Shown here in pieces: positions 1 through 13,386 of a stretch of 40,661 bases of DNA; position 1 is the stretch's first letter, and each line of letters opens with the position of its first letter. Source of the DNA: an uncultured Pelagibacteraceae bacterium (lineage in GTDB: Bacteria > Pseudomonadota > Alphaproteobacteria > Pelagibacterales > AG-422-B15). The notes under the pieces were generated by a model. That model ran no database searches and had not been told where the DNA came from. It saw only the letters and a program-made list of their open reading frames with translations. The stretch covers positions 1-40,661 of the forward strand of contig CACFGR010000003.1 in NCBI GenBank assembly GCA_902565955.1, in the 5' to 3' direction. The position numbers were made by a program, and so were the translations under genes.

Positions 1-600
1 TTTCCATACCCATTTGCATTGCTGCCATTGGGTCATTCATCATCATGTTTGGATCCATACCCATGGATGCACCCATATCATACATCGCCATAGGATCCAT
101 TGGTCCTGGCATCATACCGCCCATCATTGGATCCATCATTCCCATTGGCGCGCCTCCTGCCATTGGGTCCATCATTGGCATTCCTGGCATTCCCATAGGT
201 CCCATATCCATTGGTCCCATGCCCATCATTGGTCCCATATCCATTGGCATTCCTGGCATTCCCATTGGGCCCATGCCCTCCATACCAGGAAGCATAGACA
301 TATCCATATCCATCATTCCACCAAAGTCTGCAGGGCCAATCATTTCTGCTGTCATCATCGGCCCCATAAACATTTCACCTGCTTGCATTTGAGCTTGCAT
401 CATTCCTTGCATATCAGCCATCGAAGCCTGCATATCCACTTGTAATTGAGCAATCATATCTGCTCCCATTACATCTCCCATATCAGCCATGAAAGCGGCA
501 CCTTGATTACCCATCATTTGTGTCATACCGGCAGCCATCATGCCTGCCATCTCAGGATTTGCAGCAGCCATTTGACCCATAAACTCTCCAGCAAGGTCAG
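1..600 (-). repeat. Met/Gly/Pro-rich low-complexity C-terminal region of the giant protein
   Basis: Reverse translation: ...MGPMGMPGMPMDMGPMMGMGPMDMGPMGMPGMPMMDPMAGGAPMGMMDPMMGGMMPGPMDPMAMYDMGASMGMDPNMMMNDPMAAMQMGME. DNA repeats: ATTGGCATTCCTGGCATTCC at ~174 and ~243 (69 bp apart), GGTCCCATATCCATTGG at ~198 and ~231 (33 bp apart). Confidence 0.9.
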
Positions 601-3600
601 CCATTCCACCTTGTGTAGCTAACTGTGCCATACCACTTGCTATGTTTGCTGCAAGCTCTGGGTTATTTGCAACTAGGTCGCCCGCAAATTCTGCGGCAGC
701 GCCTGGATCAAACTGAGCCATTCCAGCGGCAACTTGACCAGCTATCGCAGGATTGGCTTCGGCCATCGATCCTGCAATTGCACCTACGGCATCAGGCGCT
801 AGTTCAGCAACACCTGCGGCAACTAAAGTTGCGGCAGCAGGATTTGCACTTGCCATTGCACCTGCAACATCTCCAGCAAGAGCTGGGTCGATAGCAGCAA
901 GGTTACCTGCGATTTCTCCTGCAGCTGCAGGGTTAGCCTGCGCCATTCCACCCGCAAAAGCTCCAGCTGCATCGGGATTAGCAGCAGCTACATCTTGCAT
1001 AATTCCAACAGCAGCCTCTCCATCAGGAATAGCTGCTAAAACTCCACCTGCAACAGCACCAGCGGCGGCAGGATTTGATGTCATTGCTGCGTCAATTACT
1101 CCAGCAGCAACATCAGGATTATCAGCAACCATTGCGCCGACAACTGTGCCAGCAGCAACAGGTGCCATTTCAGCCACACCACCAGCAATATCGTTAACTA
1201 AATTTGGATCTGCTCCAACCATCTCCATTGCAACACCTGCTGCAACTTGTGGATTACCAGCAGCGGCTCCGCCAGCGATATCTCCTGCCATATCAGGATT
1301 CGCTTCCATCATGCCTACTGCAATTTCACCTGCTTGTTGTGGAGCACCCGCGGCCATACCGCCAGCAATCTCACCTACAAAATTTTCGGCCATATCAGGA
1401 TTGGCCATAGCAGCATCCATCATGATACCCGCCATGTCACCAGCAATATCAGGATCACCGACTGCCATACCTTGAGCAATTGCTCCAACTGCATTTCCTG
1501 CAAAATTTTCAACTAACGCATCAAGTTGTTCTGGGTTAAGATCTGGATTCGCCGTAGCAGCGTTTTCTGCAAACTCTGCGGCAAAATCAGGTGCCATTGC
1601 AACTTCCATCATTGCACCTGCAACGTCTCCTGCAACTTCAGGGGCTGCGTTTGCCATACCTGCAGCAGCCGCAGAGGCAGCAGCAGGATTAGCTTCCATC
1701 ATCGCACCAGCGGCTTCAGCAGCAAGAGCTGGATCAGCTTCTGCTATAGCGCCAGCTACAGCACCGGCAGCGCCTGGAACATTTTCAGCAACAGCGGCAG
1801 CCATATCAGCAGCACCATCTGGATTTGCTTCAACCATCGCACCGGCTACGTCACCAGCGGCACCAGGAGCCATTTGTGCAACACCTCCTGCAATATCTCC
1901 CATTAATTCTGGATTGGCATTAACCATATCTGTAGCAACTTGAGCAGCAATATTAGCATCACCTCTTGCAACTCCGCCAGCGATTGCACCAGCTGCATCA
2001 GGCGCAGCTTCCATCATTGCAGTCGCAGCATCAGCAGCCAATTCAGGAGCAGCATCTGCTAAACTTTGCGCTGCTAAACCTGCAGTATCAGGGTTTGCAG
2101 CAACCATTGCGCTTGCGGCGTCTGCAGCAATCTCAGGAGCGGCTTCTGCCATTGCTCCCATTGCAGCTCCTGCAGCAATTGGATTTGCTTCAGCCATTGC
2201 AGCAGCCATATCTGTTGCAGCTTCTGGATTTGCTTCAACCATTGCACCAGCAACATCACCAGCTGCACTAGGTGCAAACTCAGCAACACCGCCAGCAATA
2301 TCAGCTGCGGCATCTGGATTTGCAGCAGCCATAGCAGTTGCTATATCAGCAGCTTGTCCAGGGTCTCCAGCGGCCATGCCGCCAGCAATATCTCCTGCTA
2401 ATTCTGGATTAGCTGCAACCATCGCACCAGCAACATCAGCAGCTTGATCAGGTGCAGCGGCAGCAATTCCTTGAGCAATCCCTTGAGCGGCCTCAGGAGC
2501 AGCATCCATCATAGCGCCAGCAATTTCTCCAGCAATTTCTGGATTTGCTCCAGCCATTCCTTCAGCAATATCTCCAGCAACATCTGGATTAGCGGCAGCC
2601 ATAGCACCAGCAGCATCTGCAGCAAGATCAGGCAATGTATCTGCTATCGCGCCAGCAGTACCTTCAGCAGCCATTGGATTTGCTTCAGCCATAGCACCAG
2701 CAACGGCTAATGCAGCATCAGGGTTCAATTCAGCAACAGAACTCATCATATTATCAGCAGCACCGGGTGCAGTTTCTGCAAGAACGGCAGCCATTGTAGC
2801 TGTGGCTTCAGGGTTTGCTTCAATTAACGTGTTCGCAACATTTTCCATAGCGACAGGTGCGGCCATTGCAACTCCAGTAGCAATGTCACCCGCAATATCA
2901 GGATTAGCTGCAACCATCGCACCTGCAATATCAGCAGCAGCTTCAGGGTTAGCCATTGCCATTCCACCTGCGATATCAGCGGCAGCTTCAGGCGCAGCAG
3001 CGGCCATAGCATTTGCTGCATCAGCAGCAAGCTCTGGTGCGGCTTCCATCATTCCTTCTGCAGCCATTTGCGCAGCAGCAGGGTTGGCCTCAGCCATAGC
3101 AGCAGCAGCCTCAACGGCTAGTTCAGGATTACTCTCAGCAATAGCAGCAGCCATATCTCCAGCCATTTCAGGAGCAGCTTGAGCTACAGCGCCAGCCATA
3201 GCGGCAGCGGCTTCAGGTGCAGCTTCCATCATAGCTCCTGCGACATCAGCAACAGCGTCAGGATTTGCATTTGCCATTCCGCCTACAATTGCAGCAGCGG
3301 CATCTGGGTTTGCTTCAACTAGTGCGGTAGCAGCATCTGCAGCAGCTTCAGGTGCTTGAGCAGCAACGCCAGCAGCGATTGCTCCAGCGGCATCTGGATT
3401 AGCTTGGATCAATGCGGCAGCAGCTTCAGCAGCAGCTTCGGGTGCTTGAGCTGAAACAACATTTGCGATTGCTCCAGCTGCATTAGGATTAATCGCAGCC
3501 ATGTCTCCAGCAATATCAGCTGCCAAGTCTGGATCTGCGGCAGCAACAGTCGCGGCAATATTTGCTACAGCTCCTGCCATAGCTTCTGGGTTGACAGCGG

Positions 3601-6600
3601 CCATGTCAGCTGCAATATCTCCAGCAAGTTCTGGTGCGGCCTGAGCAACAGAAGTTGCGATTAGGGCAGCAGCGGCAGGATTGGCTTCAGCAAGTGAACC
3701 AGCCACATTCGCAGCAGCTTCAGGCGCAGCTTCCGCAACACCCGCAGCAATCATCCCAGCAGCTTGAGGTACAGCTTCTGCTAGCGCAGCAGCGGTATCT
3801 GCAGCAGCGCCAGGATCAACTTCTATTATTGCGGCAGTAATATCTTGAGCGGCTGCAGGATTAGCAGCAGTCATTGCAGTTGCAGCAGCAACTGCAGCTT
3901 CAGGGTTTGCATCTACAACGGCAGCCATTGCATCGCCAGCAGCAGCTGGTGCAATTTGTGCAACCCCTGTAGCAATATCATTTAGAGCTTCTGGATTGGC
4001 ATCGGCCATTGCTCCTATAACATCGCCAACAGCGTCAGGTGCGCTTCTTGCCATTCCACCTGCGATTGCTGAGGCAGCATCAGGTGCAGCTTCTGCCATT
4101 GCAACAGCAACATCAGCAGCCATTTCAGGATTACCACTTGCAATACCCGCAGCAACTGCGGATGCAGCTTCTGGTGCAGCTTCTGCCATTGCTGCAGCAG
4201 CCTGAGTTGCAATGTCAGTACTTCCGCCATCAAAGAAACCTGCATCGGCCACAACAGCAGCCATGCCTTGTGCTGCAGAAGCAGCAGCAGCAGGACTAGC
4301 TTCAGCCATTGCTGTAGCAGCAGCTACAGCTTGTTCAGGTGCAGACTCCATCAATGCACCAGCAATGTCTCCAGCAGCAGCTGGATTTGCTTCTGCCATT
4401 GCAGCTGCAAGTTCACCTGCAGCTTCAGGGTCATTCGAAATAAGTTCAGATGCAACAGATGCTGCAGCTTCTGGCGCAAATTGGGCGACTGCGGCAGCCA
4501 TGTCAGCAGCAGCGTCAGGGTTAGCATTAGCCATTGCAGCTGTTACTTCAGCAGCAAATTCTGGAATAGCAGCAGCTGTGCTTGCAGCGATTTGTGCAGC
4601 AGCTTCTGGGTTTGCCTCTGCTAATGCGAGAGCAGCGTCAGCGGCAACCTCTGGATTACCCGATGCAACTCCAGCAGCTATTACCCCCGATAATTCTGGT
4701 GCAGCTTCGGCAACAGCTCCGGCCACATCCGCAATAAGTTCAGGTGCAGCTTCGGCAAGTCCCGCCATCGCCTCACCAGCTGCAGCAGGGTTTGCTTCTG
4801 CCATTGCAGTTGCTATTTCAGCGGCAGCGCCTGGATCAGCGGCAGCCATTGCTCCCAACACTTCTCCAGCAGTTTCAGGTGCAACTTGTGCAACTTGTGC
4901 CGCCATGTCTGCATTAAAGTCTGCCATATCTTCCGGTGATACCCCAGGTATCTCAGCCATTTGTTCCATCATCTGACCTGCAATTTCACCTGCAGCTTCA
5001 GGATCAGCAGCCGCAACAGCGGTTGCAATGTTTGCTGTCATTTCAGCCATTTGTTCTGCAGGATCAAAATCTGCAGGGGCGCCAGGAATCTCTGCCATTT
5101 GCTCCATCATCGCTCCGGCAAGTTCTGCAGCCTGCTCCGGCGCAGCGGCTGTTGCTTGCGTAGCAATTGCAGTTGTCATATCAGCCATTTGTCCGGCCAT
5201 ATCAAATTCTTCAGGTACATTAGGAATGTCAGCCATAACTTCCATCATGGCTCCTGCTAAGTCTGCAGCTCCTTCTGGATCTGCCTGAACAGCAGCTGAC
5301 GCCATATTAGCAGTCATTCCAGCGCCAGTTTCAGCAAGCGCTTCAGGTTCAATTCCAGGTATCTCTGCCATTTGCTCCATCATCGTTCCAGCTAATTCAG
5401 CTGCGCCTTCAGGATCAGCGATAGTTGCTGCAGATGCAACGTTAGCTGTCATTACGGCAGCAGCTTCGGCAAGTGCGCCTTCGCTTGCATTACCGTCAAC
5501 GGCCGTCATAGCTTCTACCATTGCTCCAGCAACTTCTGCAGCAGCCTCAGGTACTGCACTTGCAACTTGGGTTGCAATTGCTGTTTGCATAGCTAATGCT
5601 TCATCTTGAGAAAAGTTTTCATTACCAGCAGCAACAGCTGCCATTTCACCTGCAATTTCCGTAGCGGCTTCCGGATTAACCTGAGCAACAGTTGCAGCAA
5701 TATTTGCAGCAGCACTTGGTGCAGCTTCAGCCATAGCAACGGCAGTTTCAGTAGCAAGTTCAGGTAATGCTTCACTTACAGCGCCAACAGCAGCGCCTGC
5801 AGTTGCAGGATTTGCGTCAGCCATTGTTGCGGCTGCTTCAACTGCTTGTTCTGGTGCAACTTCTGCAATTGCTCCCATAACTCCCTCAGCAGTTCCAGGA
5901 GCTGACTCAGCGATTTGTTCAGCAATATCTGCAATTGCTTCAGGATTTGCTTCCATCATTGCGCCAGCAATATCACCAGCTAATACTTGTGCAACTTCAG
6001 CTGCAGCGCCTTGCGCTTCAGCAATTGTTTCTTGAGCAGCAGCTTGTACTTCAGTTATTGCGGCTTGAGCTTGAGCTACTAAGTTTGGATCGTCAGATGT
6101 TAAATCTGCTTGTAAATCTGCCCTTGCCTCAGCTACTTGAGCTTGTGCTTCAGCCTGAGCAGCAGCAACTTCTTGCGCGGCATTTGCTTGTGCAGCAACA
6201 GCAACACCTGTTGCAATATCAGCGGCAGCTTCCGGATCAGCAGCGGCCATTTCTGTTGCTACTTCTGCAGCAACTTCAGGATTACCTTGTGCAACTCCGC
6301 CAGCAATTGCAGCGGCAGCCTCTGGAGCAGCTTCTTGCATGGCCATAGCAGCATCACCCGCTTGGTCAGGTGCAAGTTCAGCCATCACTTCAGCAGCTGC
6401 TCCCGCAGCAGCTGGTGCAACTTCAGCCATAGCGGCAGTTGCTTCAATTGCTTGCTCTGGAGCAGCTTCAATAATTGCTTCTGTAGCAAGTGCAGCAGCG
6501 GCTGGATTCGCCTCAGCTATATCCGCGCATAATTCCACAGCTCCATCAGGATTTGATGCCATCATTTCTTGAACCATTTCCGCAGCTGCTTCTGGATTAG

Positions 6601-7510
6601 ATGCAGCGGTACCAGCAATAATTTCAGCGGCAGCGTCAGGGTTCATTTCAATCATCTCTGCAATTATTTCTTGTGTTGCGGCTTGCGATGCTTCAAGCGC
6701 GGCCTCTTGACCTGCTTGGTTATTGTCTAAAAGTGTATCTTGTAAATCAGTTTGAATGTCAACAATGCCTTCTTGACCGACTTCAGAAAATTGTGTTTGT
6801 GCTTCTGCTTGCGCTTCTGCATTAGCTTGAGCAGTTTCTTGATTAACTTCAGCTATAGCGGCTTGCGCAACTCCGGACGCAACACCTGCGGCAACAGCGG
6901 CAGCCGCTTCTGGCGCAGCTTGAGCCATTGCAGTTGCGACTTGTGAAGCAGATTCAGGGTCAACAGCAGCTACTGCACTGGCTGCTCCGCTTGCAGCTGC
7001 TGGGTTTGCAGCAGCCATTGATGCAGCAGCATCAACAGCATGTTCAGGTGCTGCTTGCGCAACGGCACTCGCAACTGCTCCTGCAGCAGCTGGAGCAACC
7101 TCAGCTATGGCGGCAGCCATGTCTGCGGCACCTTCAGGATTTATTTGTGTAAGAGATGCGGCAACAGCACCAGCGGCAGCTGGAACATTTTGCACTACAT
7201 CCGAGGCAACTTCCTCGGCAATGTCTGGCGCTGCACTTGCCATAGCGGCTGCAGTTGCATTTGCAGTAGCAGGAGCGGCAGCGGCAATAGCACCTGCGAT
7301 TTCAGCAGCTTGTTCAGGTATAGCTTGTGCTGTAACTGTAGCTATTTGTTGTGCAGCTGCAGGATTTGCTTGCACTACGGCAGCAAGCATCTCATCTGAA
7401 TTATCATTATTTGCTGCGTAATTTTGTATTAGTGCCTGTTGTTCCTCTTGTGACCCTGCTGCGGCGACCTGTTGAAAAAATTCTTGAGCTTCTGCTGGAC
7501 TTACTGGCAT
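1..7510 (-). CDS. Giant alanine-rich 15-residue-repeat protein (C-terminus truncated by window edge; >=2503 codons)
   Basis: Hand reverse translation from ATG at 7510-7508 (MPVSPAEAQEFFQQVAAAGSQEEQQALIQNYAANNDNSDEMLAAVVQANPAAAQQIA...). Frame phase checked at about 6716, 5903, 4952, 4247, 2300, 701 and 2-4: all in the same phase, no stop seen. AAAGGG Shine-Dalgarno-like sequence upstream of the ATG; tolC-like gene 31 bp upstream on the same strand. Repeats such as PELAGDIAGGMAAGD / PGQAADIATAMAAAN / PDAAADIAG are exactly 15 residues apart. Confidence 0.93.
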   Translation of the reverse strand, partial: MPVSPAEAQEFFQQVAAAGSQEEQQALIQNYAANNDNSDEMLAAVVQANPAAAQQIATVTAQAIPEQAAEIAGAIAAAAPATANATAAAMASAAPDIAEEVASDVVQNVPAAAGAVAASLTQINPEGAADMAAAIAEVAPAAAGAVASAVAQAAPEHAVDAAASMAAANPAAASGAASAVAAVDPESASQVATAMAQAAPEAAAAVAAGVASGVAQAAIAEVNQETAQANAEAQAEAQTQFSEVGQEGIVDIQTDLQDTLLDNNQAGQEAALEASQAATQEIIAEMIEMNPDAAAEIIAGTAASNPEAAAEMVQEMMASNPDGAVELCADIAEANPAAAALATEAIIEAAPEQAIEATAAMAEVAPAAAGAAAEVMAELAPDQAGDAAMAMQEAAPEAAAAIAGGVAQGNPEVAAEVATEMAAADPEAAADIATGVAVAAQANAAQEVAAAQAEAQAQVAEARADLQADLTSDDPNLVAQAQAAITEVQAAAQETIAEAQGAAAEVAQVLAGDIAGAMMEANPEAIADIAEQIAESAPGTAEGVMGAIAEVAPEQAVEAAATMADANPATAGAAVGAVSEALPELATETAVAMAEAAPSAAANIAATVAQVNPEAATEIAGEMAAVAAGNENFSQDEALAMQTAIATQVASAVPEAAAEVAGAMVEAMTAVDGNASEGALAEAAAVMTANVASAATIADPEGAAELAGTMMEQMAEIPGIEPEALAETGAGMTANMASAAVQADPEGAADLAGAMMEVMADIPNVPEEFDMAGQMADMTTAIATQATAAAPEQAAELAGAMMEQMAEIPGAPADFDPAEQMAEMTANIATAVAAADPEAAGEIAGQMMEQMAEIPGVSPEDMADFNADMAAQVAQVAPETAGEVLGAMAAADPGAAAEIATAMAEANPAAAGEAMAGLAEAAPELIADVAGAVAEAAPELSGVIAAGVASGNPEVAADAALALAEANPEAAAQIAASTAAAIPEFAAEVTAAMANANPDAAADMAAAVAQFAPEAAASVASELISNDPEAAGELAAAMAEANPAAAGDIAGALMESAPEQAVAAATAMAEASPAAAASAAQGMAAVVADAGFFDGGSTDIATQAAAAMAEAAPEAASAVAAGIASGNPEMAADVAVAMAEAAPDAASAIAGGMARSAPDAVGDVIGAMADANPEALNDIATGVAQIAPAAAGDAMAAVVDANPEAAVAAATAMTAANPAAAQDITAAIIEVDPGAAADTAAALAEAVPQAAGMIAAGVAEAAPEAAANVAGSLAEANPAAAALIATSVAQAAPELAGDIAADMAAVNPEAMAGAVANIAATVAAADPDLAADIAGDMAAINPNAAGAIANVVSAQAPEAAAEAAAALIQANPDAAGAIAAGVAAQAPEAAADAATALVEANPDAAAAIVGGMANANPDAVADVAGAMMEAAPEAAAAMAGAVAQAAPEMAGDMAAAIAESNPELAVEAAAAMAEANPAAAQMAAEGMMEAAPELAADAANAMAAAAPEAAADIAGGMAMANPEAAADIAGAMVAANPDIAGDIATGVAMAAPVAMENVANTLIEANPEATATMAAVLAETAPGAADNMMSSVAELNPDAALAVAGAMAEANPMAAEGTAGAIADTLPDLAADAAGAMAAANPDVAGDIAEGMAGANPEIAGEIAGAMMDAAPEAAQGIAQGIAAAAPDQAADVAGAMVAANPELAGDIAGGMAAGDPGQAADIATAMAAANPDAAADIAGGVAEFAPSAAGDVAGAMVEANPEAATDMAAAMAEANPIAAGAAMGAMAEAAPEIAADAASAMVAANPDTAGLAAQSLADAAPELAADAATAMMEAAPDAAGAIAGGVARGDANIAAQVATDMVNANPELMGDIAGGVAQMAPGAAGDVAGAMVEANPDGAADMAAAVAENVPGAAGAVAGAIAEADPALAAEAAGAMMEANPAAASAAAAGMANAAPEVAGDVAGAMMEVAMAPDFAAEFAENAATANPDLNPEQLDALVENFAGNAVGAIAQGMAVGDPDIAGDMAGIMMDAAMANPDMAENFVGEIAGGMAAGAPQQAGEIAVGMMEANPDMAGDIAGGAAAGNPQVAAGVAMEMVGADPNLVNDIAGGVAEMAPVAAGTVVGAMVADNPDVAAGVIDAAMTSNPAAAGAVAGGVLAAIPDGEAAVGIMQDVAAANPDAAGAFAGGMAQANPAAAGEIAGNLAAIDPALAGDVAGAMASANPAAATLVAAGVAELAPDAVGAIAGSMAEANPAIAGQVAAGMAQFDPGAAAEFAGDLVANNPELAANIASGMAQLATQGGMADLAGEFMGQMAAANPEMAGMMAAGMTQMMGNQGAAFMADMGDVMGADMIAQLQVDMQASMADMQGMMQAQMQAGEMFMGPMMTAEMIGPADFGGMMDMDMSMLPGMEGMGPMGMPGMPMDMGPMMGMGPMDMGPMGMPGMPMMDPMAGGAPMGMMDPMMGGMMPGPMDPMAMYDMGASMGMDPNMMMNDPMAAMQMGME
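600..7390 (-). repeat. Degenerate 45-bp (15-aa) coding repeat array, often paired as 90 bp (30 aa)
   Basis: Pro-to-Pro spacing of 15 residues in hand-translated stretches; recurrent A-N/A-P-[ED]-A-A-x-[DE]-[IVMA]-A-G-A-M-[AVM]-E pattern. Confidence 0.9.
4943..5400 (-). repeat. ~46-aa super-repeat block (MMEQMAEIPG...)
   Basis: ATCTC[AT]GCCATTTG[TC]TCCATCAT-like segments begin near 4950, 5088, 5226 and 5361 (spacing 138, 138, 135 nt). Confidence 0.8.
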
Positions 7511-7541
7511 TAAATATTCCCTTTCCCTTATTTATAATAAA

Positions 7542-8891
7542 TCAAGATGACGTATTGAATGTTCCTTCCCTAGAATTATCTTCAACCATTTCAGGCTGGA
7601 GTAGATCTATTACATCTAAAACTTCATAAACTGATGTTAATAAAGACATGCTATCGTCAGAAAGATCCTTGAGAGAGCTTTCAAGAGCATCTTCTGCTGC
7701 TAGGACTGCAGCAGCATCTGTTTGATCGGCGGCTCTTTCTTTCTGTGCTATCGTAAGTAACTCTTTTGCTATTGTTGCTTCATTCTCACTGTAGGAGAGC
7801 ATTGTCCTTGCATTGGCATATTCAATCCAAGCGTCTTTTGCAGCCTTGATCGTATCACGCTCTTTGAGTGCTAAGTCATTTATTGCTCTTTCTAGTGCTG
7901 AACGATCATTTAAATATCCTGGCATCTCCATGTATAAACCAGATATTGGAAATTCAACTGTTACTTTCATTTGTTCTTCGTAATGATTACCAGTTGTATG
8001 TGATGCATCGTCTTTATATGAAAGCTTTGCTTCTGCGTCTACAGTGGGTCCAAAATTAGCTAAAGCAGAACTGAGATCGTTCTTTGCAATGTCAACATCC
8101 ATTTTAGCAATTCGTAAGTCTCTATTATTTGCAAGCGCCATAACAACTGTAGCTTCCATAGATTTAGGCATCATACTGATGACTGATGGCGCTAGCCTTG
8201 GTTTGCGTAATTGATTAACATTAACATCGTCTACTTTAAATAGTTTCTCATAGGTAAACTTTGCTGATTTAAAACTTTTTTCGTCACTTATTAGTGTTTT
8301 TTGTGCGTTAGCAAGTTGCCTTTTGGCTTTAAGAACGTCTGAAGCTAATCCAGAGCCAACCTGAACTCTTATTTCTTCTTGTCCAGAAGTTTGACGAGTG
8401 TTTGCTTCTGCTGATATGGAAGCTTCCAACTTCTCATTAGCTTTAATTAATCCAAGGTAAGCATCTGCAGCCTCTATCAACAAATCATTCCTAGCAGTAG
8501 TTAATTCAAGTTCTGATTTTTTTAACTCTAGTCTTTTATTTGATATTTCAGACATTGTTGCGCCAGAGTCCATTATTTTTTGTTTCCAAGTCAAGTCATG
8601 AGTGTCGAAATTTAATTGTGAGTTAGAACTTGCTGTTGCAGCGTCATACTTATCATTTCTTCCTGATTCATACTTCCATGAAAGATCAGGAGCATAAGCA
8701 AGAATTGAATCTGTTATATCCCTTCCAGCTTCTTCAACTTCTTTTTTTGCATTGATTACATCTTCATGGCTACTTAAAACAACATCAACCATTTCAGATA
8801 AAGTTTCTGATTTAGAAGGAAGAATTAATAACATGAATGCAATAAATGAATACATCATGTAACAAATAAATTGCTTGAATTTTATCATCAT
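7542..8891 (-). CDS. tolC: TolC-family outer membrane efflux/secretion protein
   Basis: Signal-like N-terminus (MIKFKQFICYMMYSFIAFMLLILPSKSETLSEMV) and TolC coiled-coil repeat character (TARNDLLIEAADAYLGLIKANEKLEAS..., VGSGLASDVLKAKRQLANAQKTL). The ORF extends to 8933; the start near 8891/8888 is more plausible. Confidence 0.85.
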   Translation of the reverse strand: MMIKFKQFICYMMYSFIAFMLLILPSKSETLSEMVDVVLSSHEDVINAKKEVEEAGRDITDSILAYAPDLSWKYESGRNDKYDAATASSNSQLNFDTHDLTWKQKIMDSGATMSEISNKRLELKKSELELTTARNDLLIEAADAYLGLIKANEKLEASISAEANTRQTSGQEEIRVQVGSGLASDVLKAKRQLANAQKTLISDEKSFKSAKFTYEKLFKVDDVNVNQLRKPRLAPSVISMMPKSMEATVVMALANNRDLRIAKMDVDIAKNDLSSALANFGPTVDAEAKLSYKDDASHTTGNHYEEQMKVTVEFPISGLYMEMPGYLNDRSALERAINDLALKERDTIKAAKDAWIEYANARTMLSYSENEATIAKELLTIAQKERAADQTDAAAVLAAEDALESSLKDLSDDSMSLLTSVYEVLDVIDLLQPEMVEDNSREGTFNTSS

Positions 8892-9027
8892 AATAACCTC
8901 ATCAAATAAATTGGACTCAACGAAGATTATCAATCAATTATGGGAGATTTACAATGCTTTTATCTCTAAAAATAAGTAGAAATTGGTGATAAAATATATG
9001 GATATTACTGGTTTTTTTATTAAACGA

Positions 9028-10743
9028 CTAAATATCAGCGTATACGTGAGTTTCTTTTTTGGCTCCTGGATGAGTTACCGCGCCCGAAGCCGCAGAGCCA
9101 ACAGTTTGGCTATATTTCCATAATGTACCCGAATTGAAGTCTGTTTTGCGATCTTTCCATCGCTCTTTTCTTTTAGCCAAATCGCTTTCATTAACATTTA
9201 GGGTTATCTCTCCCTTATCTGCATCGAGAAGAATTTCATCACCATCCTCAATCAATGCGATTGGACCACAGACTGCCGCTTCTGGCGATACATGGCCCAC
9301 GCAAAAACCCCTAGTAGCGCCACTAAACCTACCATCCGTAATTAAAGCAACTTTATCTCCCATCCCTTGTCCATAAATTGCAGCTGTCGTAGATAACATT
9401 TCCCTCATCCCTGGACCTCCTTTGGGACCTTCATATCGTATAACAAAAACATCGCCTTCTTTATAATTATTGTTTTTTACACATTCAAATGCGTCTTCTT
9501 CACAATCAAAGCAGATTGCATTACCTTTAAATTTTAGTTTTTCCATCCCAGCAACTTTTACAATTGCCCCCTCTGGAGCAAGATTCCCCTTTAATCCAAC
9601 AACTCCTCCTGTGGGACTCAAAGGTTTGTTGTATGGTCGTATTACCTTTTGATTAATATTAAATTTTACACTCTCTAAATTTTCAGCAATAGTTTTTCCC
9701 GTCACAGTTAAACAATCGCCATGAATATAACCACCTTCATATAAAGTTTTAATAATTATTGGCACACCTCCAGCCTCATAAACATCTTTAGCTACATATT
9801 GACCGCCCGGTTTCAGATCAGCTAGATACGGAGTACGTTTAAAAATGTCAACAACGTCATCCAGATGAAATTTTATTCCACACTCGTGAGCTATCGCTGG
9901 TAAATGTAGTGCTGCATTTGTAGAGCCACCGGTAGCAGCAACAATAGTTGCGGCATTTTCAAGAGATTTTTTGGTAACTATATCTCTGGGTCTTATATTA
10001 TTTTTAATTAAATACATGACTTGGTTTCCAGACTCGTATGCGTATTTATCTCTTTCTTCATAAGGAGCGGGCGCACCAGAAGAGTATGGAAGCGCTAAAC
10101 CAATTGCTTCTGAAACACACGCCATGGTATTAGCTGTAAATTGACCACCACAAGCACCAGCGCTCGGACAGGCAACGCATTCAAGTTCATGCAGTTCTTC
10201 TTCAGTAGCGTTTCCAGATGAAAATTTGCCAACTGCCTCGAAAACATCAACTACTGTTACATCTTTGCCTTTATACTTTCCAGGTAATATGCTGCCCCCG
10301 TACATAAAAACACTTGGTACATTTAATCTACACATCGCCATCATTAAGCCTGGAAGCGATTTATCACAGCCAGCTAATCCAACAATTGCATCATAACAAT
10401 GACCTCTTACAGTCAGCTCAGTTGAGTCTGCTATTACTTCACGTGACACCAATGATGACTTCATGCCTTGATGACCCATGGCAATGCCATCTGTTACAGT
10501 AATTGTGCAAAATTCGCGCGGCGTTCCCTCTGCCTCAGTAACTCCTTTTTTTACAGATTGTGCTTGGCGCATCAGAGCTATGTTGCATGGTGCAGCCTCA
10601 TTCCATGTAGAAACTACCCCTACAAATGGCTTATTTATGTCATTTTCATCCATTCCCATAGCATAATAATATGATCGATGAGGAGCTCTTTCTGGTCCAA
10701 CTGACACGTGACGACTTGGCAATTTGTTTTTATTAAACTTCAT
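9028..10743 (-). CDS. ilvD: Dihydroxy-acid dehydratase
   Basis: IlvD motifs: [74 protein letters not shown]. Confidence 0.97.
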
Positions 10744-10746
10744 TGT

Positions 10747-13386
10747 TTACTCAAAATTTTGAATAGTTTTTGTTATTTTATCTTTAGACAATTGGTACTC
10801 TTTTTCTCTTTCTTTTTGTTCTAAGATTATTTCTTCAGGCGCATTATTTAAAAAATTTTTGTCGTTCAACTTGCTGTGTATTTTAGTCAATTCTAGTTCA
10901 GTTTTTTTCAGATTTTTTTGTAGTCTTCTTTTTTCTTCTTCAAAATCAATAATACCCTTAAGTGATAAATATATCAAACCATCATTAAATATGACCTGAA
11001 CCATGCCCTCATCTTTAGAAAATTCTTCTTTTTCAAATGAGTCAGATCTTGTAAGTGAAATAATTATTTCTTTGTTTTTTTCAATTATTTCCTCTAAATC
11101 AGAACTAACATTTGAATAGCTTATTTTAATTTTGGACTTAGCGGGCACATTTAGCTCAGCCCTTGTAGACCTAATTGATGATATCAAATTTATAAATAAA
11201 GTTACTTTCTCACTATTATTAGGTTCAAAATCTAATTTCTGCGGCCACTGAGATCGGCTAATTCTCTGAGACCCTTTCTCTAAGATATTTGTTGCTTTAT
11301 CCCAAACATGTTCTGTAAAAAAGGGCATAATTGGGTGAAGCATGACTAAAATTTTTGAAAGCACGAATGAGGTAATTTGTTTGGTCTCATTAATTATTAT
11401 TTTATCATTTGAAGAATATATAATTTTTGTAATTTCGAGGTACCAATCACAAAATATACTCCACGTGAACTTATAAAGAGCATTTGCCGCTTCATTAAAC
11501 TTATAGTCTTTAATTGATTGTTCTGTTTTTTTTCTGCAAATTTCAAGTTCATTTAAAATCCACAAATTAAATATATTTTGGGTGTTTTTGATTTCAAAAT
11601 CTTCGTAAAGACATTCATTCATTTCACATAACTTTACTGCATTCCAAACCTTAGTAATAAAATTTCTATAGCCTTCAACTCTCTGCTTTGAAAGTTTTAT
11701 GTCTCTACCTTGAGCAGCCATTGAACAAAGAGTCATTCTTAAAGAGTCTGCGCCAAACTCATCCATCAATATTAAAGGGTCTATTACATTTCCTTTTGAC
11801 TTAGACATTTTCTGTCCTTTTTCATCTCTCACTAAAGCATGAACATACACTTCACTGAATGGGACTTTATTTGTAAAATATAAACCCATCATCATCATGC
11901 GAGCGACCCAAAAAAATATAATATCGAAACCGGTTACTAGAGTTGATGTGGGATAAAATTTTTCAAACTCTGGCGTTTCATCAGGCCATCCTAGAGTAGA
12001 AAAAGGCCATAAAGCTGAAGAAAACCATGTATCAAGAACATCTTCATCTTGAACAAGTTTTACATCTTTTTTGTACTTTTCCCTGGCTATCTTGTGAGCA
12101 TCATCTGAATTTTCAGCGACAAAAATTTCTCCATCTGGCCCATACCAAGCCGGTATTTGATGACCCCATATCAATTGTCTTGAAATGCACCAAGGTTGAA
12201 TATTTTCCATCCAATCAAAATATGTTTTCTCCCAATTTTGAGGAACAAATATTGTTTCTTTTGTTTTTACCTTATCGATTGCATTTAAAGACAATTTTTT
12301 TGCATTTACAAACCATTGATCTGTAAGCCATGGCTCCACCACTTCACCCGATCTATCTCCATATGGTACAGTATGAATATTTTCTTCAACTTTATTTAGG
12401 GCTCCAATAGTTTCTAATTCATTAACAATTTTCTCCCTTGCTTTAAAGCGATCAAGATTTTGATATTCGGTTGGGCAGTTTTCATTAAGCTCAGCATTCT
12501 CATTAAAAATATTTATTACTTCAAGATTATGTCTTTTTCCTATGTCATAATCATTAAAATCATGAGCTGGAGTTATTTTAACAGCACCAGAGCCTTGATC
12601 CACTTTTACATACTCATCAGCAATAATAATAATTTTTTTATTAATGATGGGAATATATGCATACTTACCTACAAAATCTTTGAACCTTTCGTCTTCAGGA
12701 TGAACAGCAATTGCCGTATCTCCAAGCATTGTTTCGGGTCGAGTTGTTGCAATTGTAATTATCTTATCTTCATTTTCTAATTTGTAGTCTATATACCAGA
12801 GCGAACCTTTTACTTCTTTTTGGATCACTTCTAAATCTGAAATAGTGGTTTTTAATTTTGGGTCCCAGTTACTTAATCTTTTATCTTTATAAATAAGTTT
12901 ATCATTATATAATTTGACGAATACAAATCTTACTGCTTTTGACAAACCTTCGTCCAGAGTAAACCTTTCTCTAGACCAATCACATGAACAACCTAATCTT
13001 TTTAATTGATTAATAATTTCATTACCAGATTGATTTTTCCATTCCCATACATGTTCTATAAACTGTTCACGAGATAAATCTTTTTTATTTATGTCTCTTT
13101 TTTTTAGTTCTCTTTCAACAACCATTTCTGTCGCGATACCAGCATGGTCTGTACCAGGCTGCCACAAAACACTTTTGCCCTGCATTCTATAAAACCTAAC
13201 CAAGATATCCTGGAGAGTATTATTTAGAGCATGGCCCATATGAAGTGTTCCTGTAACATTTGGAGGAGGGATCACTATGCAGTAAGCGTCACTTGAAGAC
13301 TCTAAAGGTTTAAAATCTCGACCATTTTCCCATGTTTTATAAATTTTATCTTCAACAAGACTTGGTTGATAATATTTTTCCAACAT
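10747..13386 (-). CDS. valS: Valyl-tRNA synthetase
   Basis: Class I aaRS HMGH (TGTLHMGHALNNTLQD) and KMSKSKGNVIDP motifs, ValS length and C-terminal coiled coil. Confidence 0.97.
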   Translation of the reverse strand: MLEKYYQPSLVEDKIYKTWENGRDFKPLESSSDAYCIVIPPPNVTGTLHMGHALNNTLQDILVRFYRMQGKSVLWQPGTDHAGIATEMVVERELKKRDINKKDLSREQFIEHVWEWKNQSGNEIINQLKRLGCSCDWSRERFTLDEGLSKAVRFVFVKLYNDKLIYKDKRLSNWDPKLKTTISDLEVIQKEVKGSLWYIDYKLENEDKIITIATTRPETMLGDTAIAVHPEDERFKDFVGKYAYIPIINKKIIIIADEYVKVDQGSGAVKITPAHDFNDYDIGKRHNLEVINIFNENAELNENCPTEYQNLDRFKAREKIVNELETIGALNKVEENIHTVPYGDRSGEVVEPWLTDQWFVNAKKLSLNAIDKVKTKETIFVPQNWEKTYFDWMENIQPWCISRQLIWGHQIPAWYGPDGEIFVAENSDDAHKIAREKYKKDVKLVQDEDVLDTWFSSALWPFSTLGWPDETPEFEKFYPTSTLVTGFDIIFFWVARMMMMGLYFTNKVPFSEVYVHALVRDEKGQKMSKSKGNVIDPLILMDEFGADSLRMTLCSMAAQGRDIKLSKQRVEGYRNFITKVWNAVKLCEMNECLYEDFEIKNTQNIFNLWILNELEICRKKTEQSIKDYKFNEAANALYKFTWSIFCDWYLEITKIIYSSNDKIIINETKQITSFVLSKILVMLHPIMPFFTEHVWDKATNILEKGSQRISRSQWPQKLDFEPNNSEKVTLFINLISSIRSTRAELNVPAKSKIKISYSNVSSDLEEIIEKNKEIIISLTRSDSFEKEEFSKDEGMVQVIFNDGLIYLSLKGIIDFEEEKRRLQKNLKKTELELTKIHSKLNDKNFLNNAPEEIILEQKEREKEYQLSKDKITKTIQNFE

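What the first reader, a model, noticed from the sequence alone, without database searches (positions are those of the whole stretch)
1..7510. Unlisted giant (>2,500 aa) Ala-rich repeat protein occupies the whole left arm
The ORF track shows only fragmentary, mostly plus-strand ORFs here, but the minus strand holds one open frame from ATG 7510 to base 1. It has an SD-like sequence, consistent phase at every checkpoint and a meaningful repeat. Composition is extreme: Ala dominates, with Glu/Asp, Met, Gly, Pro and Asn; by eye only a few Arg, no Lys and one Cys. In a compact genome a gene this long implies strong selection. The repeat copies are diverged at DNA level, arguing against recent assembly or replication slippage. 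I do not recognise it as a named family.
Basis: partly seen in the sequence, partly recalled or inferred. Interest (0 to 1): 0.92.

Follow-up and report, generated by a model that had tools for sequence, protein, structure and literature searches.

The report
Giant secreted alanine-rich SAR11 surface protein
A SAR11-type ocean bacterium with a tiny genome carries a roughly 3,000-residue protein built from over a hundred 15-residue helical repeats, apparently pushed out of the cell by its own type I secretion machinery; its repeats break short-read assemblies and its near-lack of lysine and arginine hides it from standard trypsin-based proteomics.

Summary
The minus-strand frame 7510..2 is open for 2,503 codons with no stop and runs off the contig. 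It has A 890, K 0, R 3, C 1 and 109 in-phase copies of a 15-residue repeat ([NAD]PEAAADIAGAMAEA). Orthologs in single-cell genomes labelled Pelagibacteraceae give dN/dS 0.04-0.07, so it is a real gene under strong constraint. Three uninterrupted orthologs (2,958-3,176 aa) show what the contig edge cut off: a Met-Asp-Pro-Gly spacer and an RTX/serralysin-type C-terminal domain. The gene lies in an operon, TolC - giant - type I ABC exporter - HlyD, inserted next to ilvD; two relatives lack this island. TolC is in the window (7542-8933); the end of HlyD is on another contig of the same genome; the exporter gene was not recovered. AlphaFold2 models the repeats as an alpha-solenoid with one helix per 15 residues (pLDDT 87), without a significant match among solved structures. 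Best explanation: a type-I-secreted, acidic, fibre-like surface or extracellular protein. Export is well supported but indirect; attachment and purpose are inferred. It is a new variant of a known kind (giant T1SS/RTX surface proteins), hard to see by short-read assembly and by trypsin proteomics.

The parts
2..7510 (-). Giant ORF, 2,503 codons, open at the 3' end (contig edge); expected full length about 3,000 aa from orthologs
7518..7529 (-). Shine-Dalgarno-like aagggaaaggga upstream of ATG 7510
   Evidence: sequence
7367..7510 (-). Non-repeat N-terminus, residues 1-48; no signal peptide recognised by eye
   Evidence: inference
6872..7366 (-). 15-residue repeat tract, 11 copies (residues 49-213)
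6194..6643 (-). 15-residue repeat tract, 10 copies (residues 290-439)
5633..5947 (-). 15-residue repeat tract, 7 copies (residues 522-626)
4253..4882 (-). 15-residue repeat tract, 14 copies (residues 877-1086)
3548..4177 (-). 15-residue repeat tract, 14 copies (residues 1112-1321)
1961..3535 (-). Longest tract, 35 uninterrupted copies (residues 1326-1850); same copy number in the ten orthologs that cover it
   Evidence: AF2 model of residues 1386-1565 pLDDT 87
1601..1915 (-). 15-residue repeat tract, 7 copies (residues 1866-1970)
986..1345 (-). 15-residue repeat tract, 8 copies (residues 2056-2175)
620..979 (-). 15-residue repeat tract, 8 copies (residues 2178-2297)
2..322 (-). Start of the Met/Asp/Pro/Gly-rich spacer (residue 2397 onward), cut by the contig end
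7542..8933 (-). TolC-family outer membrane channel (PF02321), first gene of the type I secretion operon, 31 bp before the giant ORF
9028..10743 (-). ilvD, conserved upstream flank of the island (valS lies at 10747-13386)

Best explanation
The ORF is the first ~80% of an approximately 3,000-residue substrate of a dedicated type I secretion system (TolC - giant - ABC permease/ATPase - HlyD). The C-terminal RTX-type domain engages the ABC exporter, and the chain is threaded unfolded through exporter, HlyD and TolC without a signal peptide. Outside, the 15-residue repeats fold into a very long, strongly acidic alpha-solenoid rod, one short helix per repeat capped by the [N/A/D]-P-[E/D] turn. A flexible Met- or Gly/Pro-rich spacer joins the rod to the C-terminal domain. 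The rod most likely serves as a surface or extracellular fibre (adhesion, shielding against phage or grazers, or cell-cell contact). Shown: open frame, repeat, purifying selection, C-terminal homology in orthologs, operon in relatives, modelled helical solenoid. Inferred: that the window's own copy ends the same way, that export happens, that the protein stays at the surface, and its purpose.
For: ORF and repeat. Selection: dN/dS 0.041-0.067 over 2,264-2,330 codons against eight orthologs. Full orthologs and operon order TolC - giant - ABC - HlyD in L021, with giant - ABC - HlyD also in L027 and L025 and TolC just upstream of the gene in the same genomes G011 and G013. Exporter parts: HlyD matches TIGR01843 at 322 bits, cut-off 209; ABC matches type I exporter models LssB/PrtD/HlyB (E 1e-95 to 7e-60, below their cut-offs); TolC matches TIGR01844 (1e-31, below cut-off). 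C-terminus: RTX repeats PF00353 pass the cut-off in L025 and in gene ends L100, L110, L113 next to the same ABC-HlyD. The 17 terminal domains align, and their profile hits secreted protease C and alginate epimerase modules, E 2e-5 to 1e-4. AF2 of the L021 domain has pLDDT 89.5 and its best PDB neighbours are CyaA RTX block V (prob 0.99, TM 0.49, E 0.02). Repeats: AF2 pLDDT 87, pTM 0.79, twelve helices in twelve repeats. Same genome: HlyD C-terminal part (84% identical to L021) on contig C49, followed by the same downstream genes as L021. Solenoid 90-95% identical between orthologs while the C-terminal domain is 39-46% and the ABC 49-70%: the secretion end varies together with its exporter.
Against: The window's own copy is cut before the C-terminal domain, and the ABC gene was not found in its 62%-complete assembly. 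L021 itself has no significant Pfam/NCBIfam RTX hit; its assignment rests on alignment with RTX-bearing syntenic genes and on a weak fold match. The AF2 alignment used register-shifted copies of one repeat family, which may inflate confidence. No secretion or localisation data exist here, and no anchor domain was found.
Confidence: 0.78

Rival explanations
1. A LapA-type adhesin: type-I-secreted giant protein held in TolC by an N-terminal retention module and released by the periplasmic protease LapG.
For: Same export route, size and repeat-rich build.
Against: No LapG (PF06035) in any of 53 family genomes, although the control genome Caulobacter was found. The N-terminus goes into helical repeats at residue 49 and no retention module was recognised.
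Confidence: 0.08
2. An intracellular or periplasmic scaffold or storage protein, with the T1SS neighbours coincidental.
For: No Sec signal peptide is evident and the exporter was not recovered in the window genome.
Against: Close TolC spacing, conserved order TolC-giant-ABC-HlyD, and a C-terminal domain of known T1SS-substrate type.
Confidence: 0.06
3. A secreted RTX toxin-like effector whose repeats are only a carrier.
For: RTX-type C-terminus and T1SS.
Against: No catalytic or toxin domain found in Pfam or NCBIfam; almost the whole length is repeat.
Confidence: 0.05
4. A low-complexity ORF without function, open by codon bias.
For: Extreme composition also opens spurious frames on other strands.
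Against: dN/dS 0.04-0.07, conserved tract lengths in orthologs, GC3 like neighbours, SD-like site.
Confidence: 0.01

Closest known systems
Giant RTX/T1SS surface proteins and adhesins (e.g. LapA, MpAFP; from general knowledge)
   Same: Size, long repeat region, C-terminal RTX-type secretion domain, TolC/ABC/HlyD export
   Different: Repeats here are 15-residue single helices, not beta-rich (Ig/cadherin-like) domains; no LapG in the family; RTX nonapeptides reduced or lost in the orthologs closest to the window
Serralysin / alginate epimerase C-terminal RTX modules
   Same: Terminal domain profile matches them, so a secretion domain of the same type
   Different: No enzyme domain; attached to a helical solenoid
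Synechococcus SwmB and other giant marine exoproteins (PMC4949707)
   Same: Giant (>2,000 aa) exported proteins of marine bacteria, strain-variable, discussed as protective or interaction proteins
   Different: No sequence relation tested; SwmB is 10,791 aa from a cyanobacterium
Alpha-solenoids (ARM, HEAT, TPR, Sel1)
   Same: Stacked short helices; best fold neighbours are of this kind
   Different: No match at E <= 0.001 in PDB or BFVD; 15-residue unit with one helix of 11-14 residues, far shorter than the 34-42-residue units of those families
FecR-domain proteins with a 15-mer Ala-rich tract in other Alphaproteobacteria (L124, L125)
   Same: Same 15-residue phase and pattern (e.g. APESAAAIASSVTTA)
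   Different: 630-707-residue frames, about a dozen copies, FecR domain, no RTX end

Membership tests
Type I secretion substrate with RTX-type C-terminus | C-terminal uncleaved secretion domain of RTX/serralysin type | tested here: met
   Met in orthologs L021, L025, L027, L033 and in gene ends beside the same exporter; the window copy is cut before it
Type I secretion substrate with RTX-type C-terminus | Gene next to ABC exporter, HlyD adaptor and TolC channel | tested here: met
   Complete order in L021, and ABC-HlyD downstream in L027, L025; in the window genome TolC adjacent and HlyD part on C49, ABC not recovered
Type I secretion substrate with RTX-type C-terminus | Export shown experimentally | not testable with these tools
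   needs proteomics or localisation
RTX protein (PF00353) | GGxGxDxUx nonapeptide repeats | tested here: inconclusive
   Clear in L025, L100, L110, L113, weak in L099, absent in the L021 terminal domain; unknown in the window copy
LapA-type retained adhesin | LapG protease encoded | tested here: not met
   0 of 53 genomes, control positive
LapA-type retained adhesin | N-terminal retention module | tested here: inconclusive
   No Pfam/NCBIfam match; repeats start at residue 49
XPC-binding (PF09280) | At least one significant domain match | tested here: not met
   Whole-protein score passes but 0 stretches are significant on their own
Alpha-solenoid repeat protein | Tandem helical repeats stacking in one continuous fold | tested here: met
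   AF2 model only, pLDDT 87, pTM 0.79; no experimental structure

The most novel reading that the evidence does not exclude
A previously undescribed class of extracellular fibre: an alpha-solenoid of over 100 single-helix 15-residue units, secreted by type I, widespread in one SAR11 genus, and missed so far because its repeats break short-read assemblies and it yields no usable tryptic peptides (none of 7-30 residues in the window copy and in L021).
Probability: 0.4. Interest if true: 0.75.

Novelty: new variant of a known kind. Interest (0 to 1): 0.62.

Why it matters
SAR11 cells are textbook cases of genome streamlining, yet this lineage spends about 9 kb plus an exporter on one surface-type protein. 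The solenoid is 90-95% identical between species while its exporter and secretion end diverge, so the rod itself is what selection keeps. Because the gene breaks contigs in most genomes that carry the operon, and in silico trypsin digestion gives no peptide of 7-30 residues, routine genomics and metaproteomics would both miss it; a change of protease or long reads would test this directly. Its low nitrogen and carbon content (1.09 N and 3.97 C per residue against 1.31 and 5.13 for other genes of the window) also bears on how oligotrophs afford giant proteins.

Tried and rejected
Pfam XPC-binding and ApoLp-III hits on the repeat: rejected as compositional. Phages, plasmids, viral contigs, PHROGs: no relatives. 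PDB by sequence profile of the repeat: nothing below E 0.2. PDB and BFVD by fold of the repeat: nothing at E <= 0.001. A first alignment of overlapping repeat segments slipped out of register (390 columns) and was replaced by A2. LapA/LapG system: not supported. Literature searches for a SAR11 giant/T1SS/RTX protein found no description in the held library; subscription papers are not covered. Antifreeze function was considered because of the alanine-rich helices and set aside: the unit is not the 11-residue type I AFP repeat (general knowledge), and nothing else points to ice.

Full report
Observation. The minus strand of 7510..1 translates into 2,503 residues without a stop and runs off the contig; the window is contig C3 of an 867-kb, 62%-complete genome. 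Composition is A 890, M 202, E 196, D 147, K 0, R 3, C 1, net charge -340. The 15-residue periodicity is far above chance (0.314 at lag 15 against 0.165 +/- 0.007 in shuffles) and 109 copies are in phase, with consensus [N/A/D]-P-[E/D]-A-A-[A/G]-[D/E]-[I/V]-A-[G/A]-A-[M/V]-A-E-A. An SD-like site precedes the ATG.

Is it a gene? Against eight orthologs with 90-96% amino-acid identity, dS is 0.50-0.91 and dN 0.021-0.058, giving dN/dS 0.041-0.067 (Nei-Gojobori); the more distant L032 gives 0.11 with dS near saturation. GC3 is 0.245, like ValS, IlvD and TolC. The repeat tracts keep their copy number: the 35-copy tract is present in the window and in the ten orthologs that cover it. Repeat copies within the gene are only 54% identical in DNA on average. 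The frame is therefore an old, constrained protein-coding gene.

What the contig edge cut off. Three single-cell genomes labelled Pelagibacteraceae carry it whole: L021 (3,058 aa), L027 (2,958 aa), L025 (3,176 aa). After the solenoid comes a spacer of about 400-490 residues rich in Met, Asp, Pro and Gly, then a terminal domain. L025 has RTX nonapeptides (PF00353, 63.6 bits against a cut-off of 23), as do gene ends L100, L110 and L113 in other genomes. The last ~110-130 residues of 17 such proteins align; their profile matches secreted protease C and alginate epimerase RTX modules, and the AF2 model of the L021 domain (pLDDT 89.5) is closest to CyaA RTX block V (suggestive, E 0.02).

The operon. 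Order is ilvD - TolC - giant - ABC - HlyD in the complete loci. HlyD passes TIGR01843; ABC and TolC match type I models without reaching their curated cut-offs. In the window, TolC ends 31 bp before the giant ORF. In the same genome the C-terminal part of HlyD lies on contig C49, followed by an inverse-autotransporter barrel (PF11924), a ~300-aa exported-looking protein and two small enzymes, as in L021. The ABC gene is missing from this assembly. HlyD was found in 32 of 53 family genomes, usually within a few kb of a contig end, with, in those read, the broken 3' end of a low-complexity-spacer-plus-terminal-domain gene upstream; only three genomes carry the giant gene unbroken. Two genomes of the same genus, G005 and G006, have ilvD with no such operon beside it, so it is an island, present or absent.

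Distribution. The giant gene itself was seen at high similarity in 15 of 53 family genomes, all in one genus (own genome counted; G030 has only a weak paralog hit), and in no other genus among 397 genomes of the order. Genomes whose ilvD region is not assembled cannot be scored, so this is a lower bound. G074 of another genus has TolC, partial ABC, HlyD and the barrel, with the giant gene unassembled. Degenerate relatives with RTX ends lie elsewhere in G022 (1,675 aa) and G030 (749 aa). A profile of the repeat found, in 385 genomes of the class, outside the order only FecR-domain-type proteins of one genus.

Structure. Twelve repeats (residues 1386-1565), modelled with repeat segments and orthologs as alignment, give pLDDT 87 and pTM 0.79 with twelve helices of 11-14 residues. 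Nothing in the PDB or in viral models matches at E <= 0.001; the nearest are ARM/HEAT- and TPR-like solenoids with TM about 0.3-0.5. The alignment consisted of shifted copies of one repeat, which may raise confidence.

Mechanism. Established knowledge: type I substrates carry an uncleaved C-terminal signal, cross both membranes in one step, and are typically acidic and poor in cysteine. The giant protein fits each point that can be read from sequence. Inference: after export the repeats fold into a long acidic rod and the spacer lets the terminal domain sit apart. The rod is the conserved part (90-95% identity) while spacer (68-80%), terminal domain (39-46%) and ABC (49-70%) vary, which suggests that the secretion end and its exporter change together while the rod's role is kept. 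Adhesion, shielding from phage or grazers, and cell contact cannot be told apart here. No anchor was identified; the barrel without passenger encoded downstream in some genomes is a candidate partner, untested. LapG was absent from all 53 genomes, so LapA-style retention is unlikely.

Why it has been hard to see. The gene breaks assemblies (above). In silico trypsin digestion gives 4 peptides for the window copy and 5 for L021, none of 7-30 residues; Glu-C, Asp-N and chymotrypsin would cover 0.53-0.75 of the window copy. Searches of the held literature found no description; giant exported proteins are known from marine Synechococcus (PMC4949707).

Verdict. Real, strongly constrained, a new variant of giant type-I-secreted surface-type proteins. 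Confidence in export is high but indirect; function beyond that is a hypothesis.

Noticed in passing
L096:2347-3279 and 1439-2344 (same genome, contig C49); also L021, L027, L161: An inverse-autotransporter beta-barrel (PF11924) of about 310 aa with no passenger domain, followed by a ~300-aa exported-looking protein without Pfam match, directly after HlyD in a subset of genomes.
   Followed up: partly
L162:2968-6277, L163:2991-6302 (G006, G005): Genomes without the island have, next to ilvD, a PAPS-reductase-domain protein (490 aa) and a CysN-CysC-like fusion. A paper in the library states that Ca. P. ubique lacks assimilatory sulfate reduction (PMC5069961, abstract), so this deserves a look.
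   Followed up: partly
L105:5464-10491 (G022), L106:3273-5522 (G030): Shorter, degenerate relatives with 15-mer-like repeats and RTX ends, at other genome positions without adjacent exporter genes.
   Followed up: partly
L124, L125 (G582, G752): FecR-domain proteins with about a dozen copies of a very similar 15-residue Ala-rich repeat in a distant alphaproteobacterial genus.
   Followed up: partly
L032 (NZZP01000009.1): A contig labelled Gammaproteobacteria MAG NAT245 has the same gene order and a giant gene 79% identical to the window's; the label looks wrong or the bin is contaminated.
   Followed up: no
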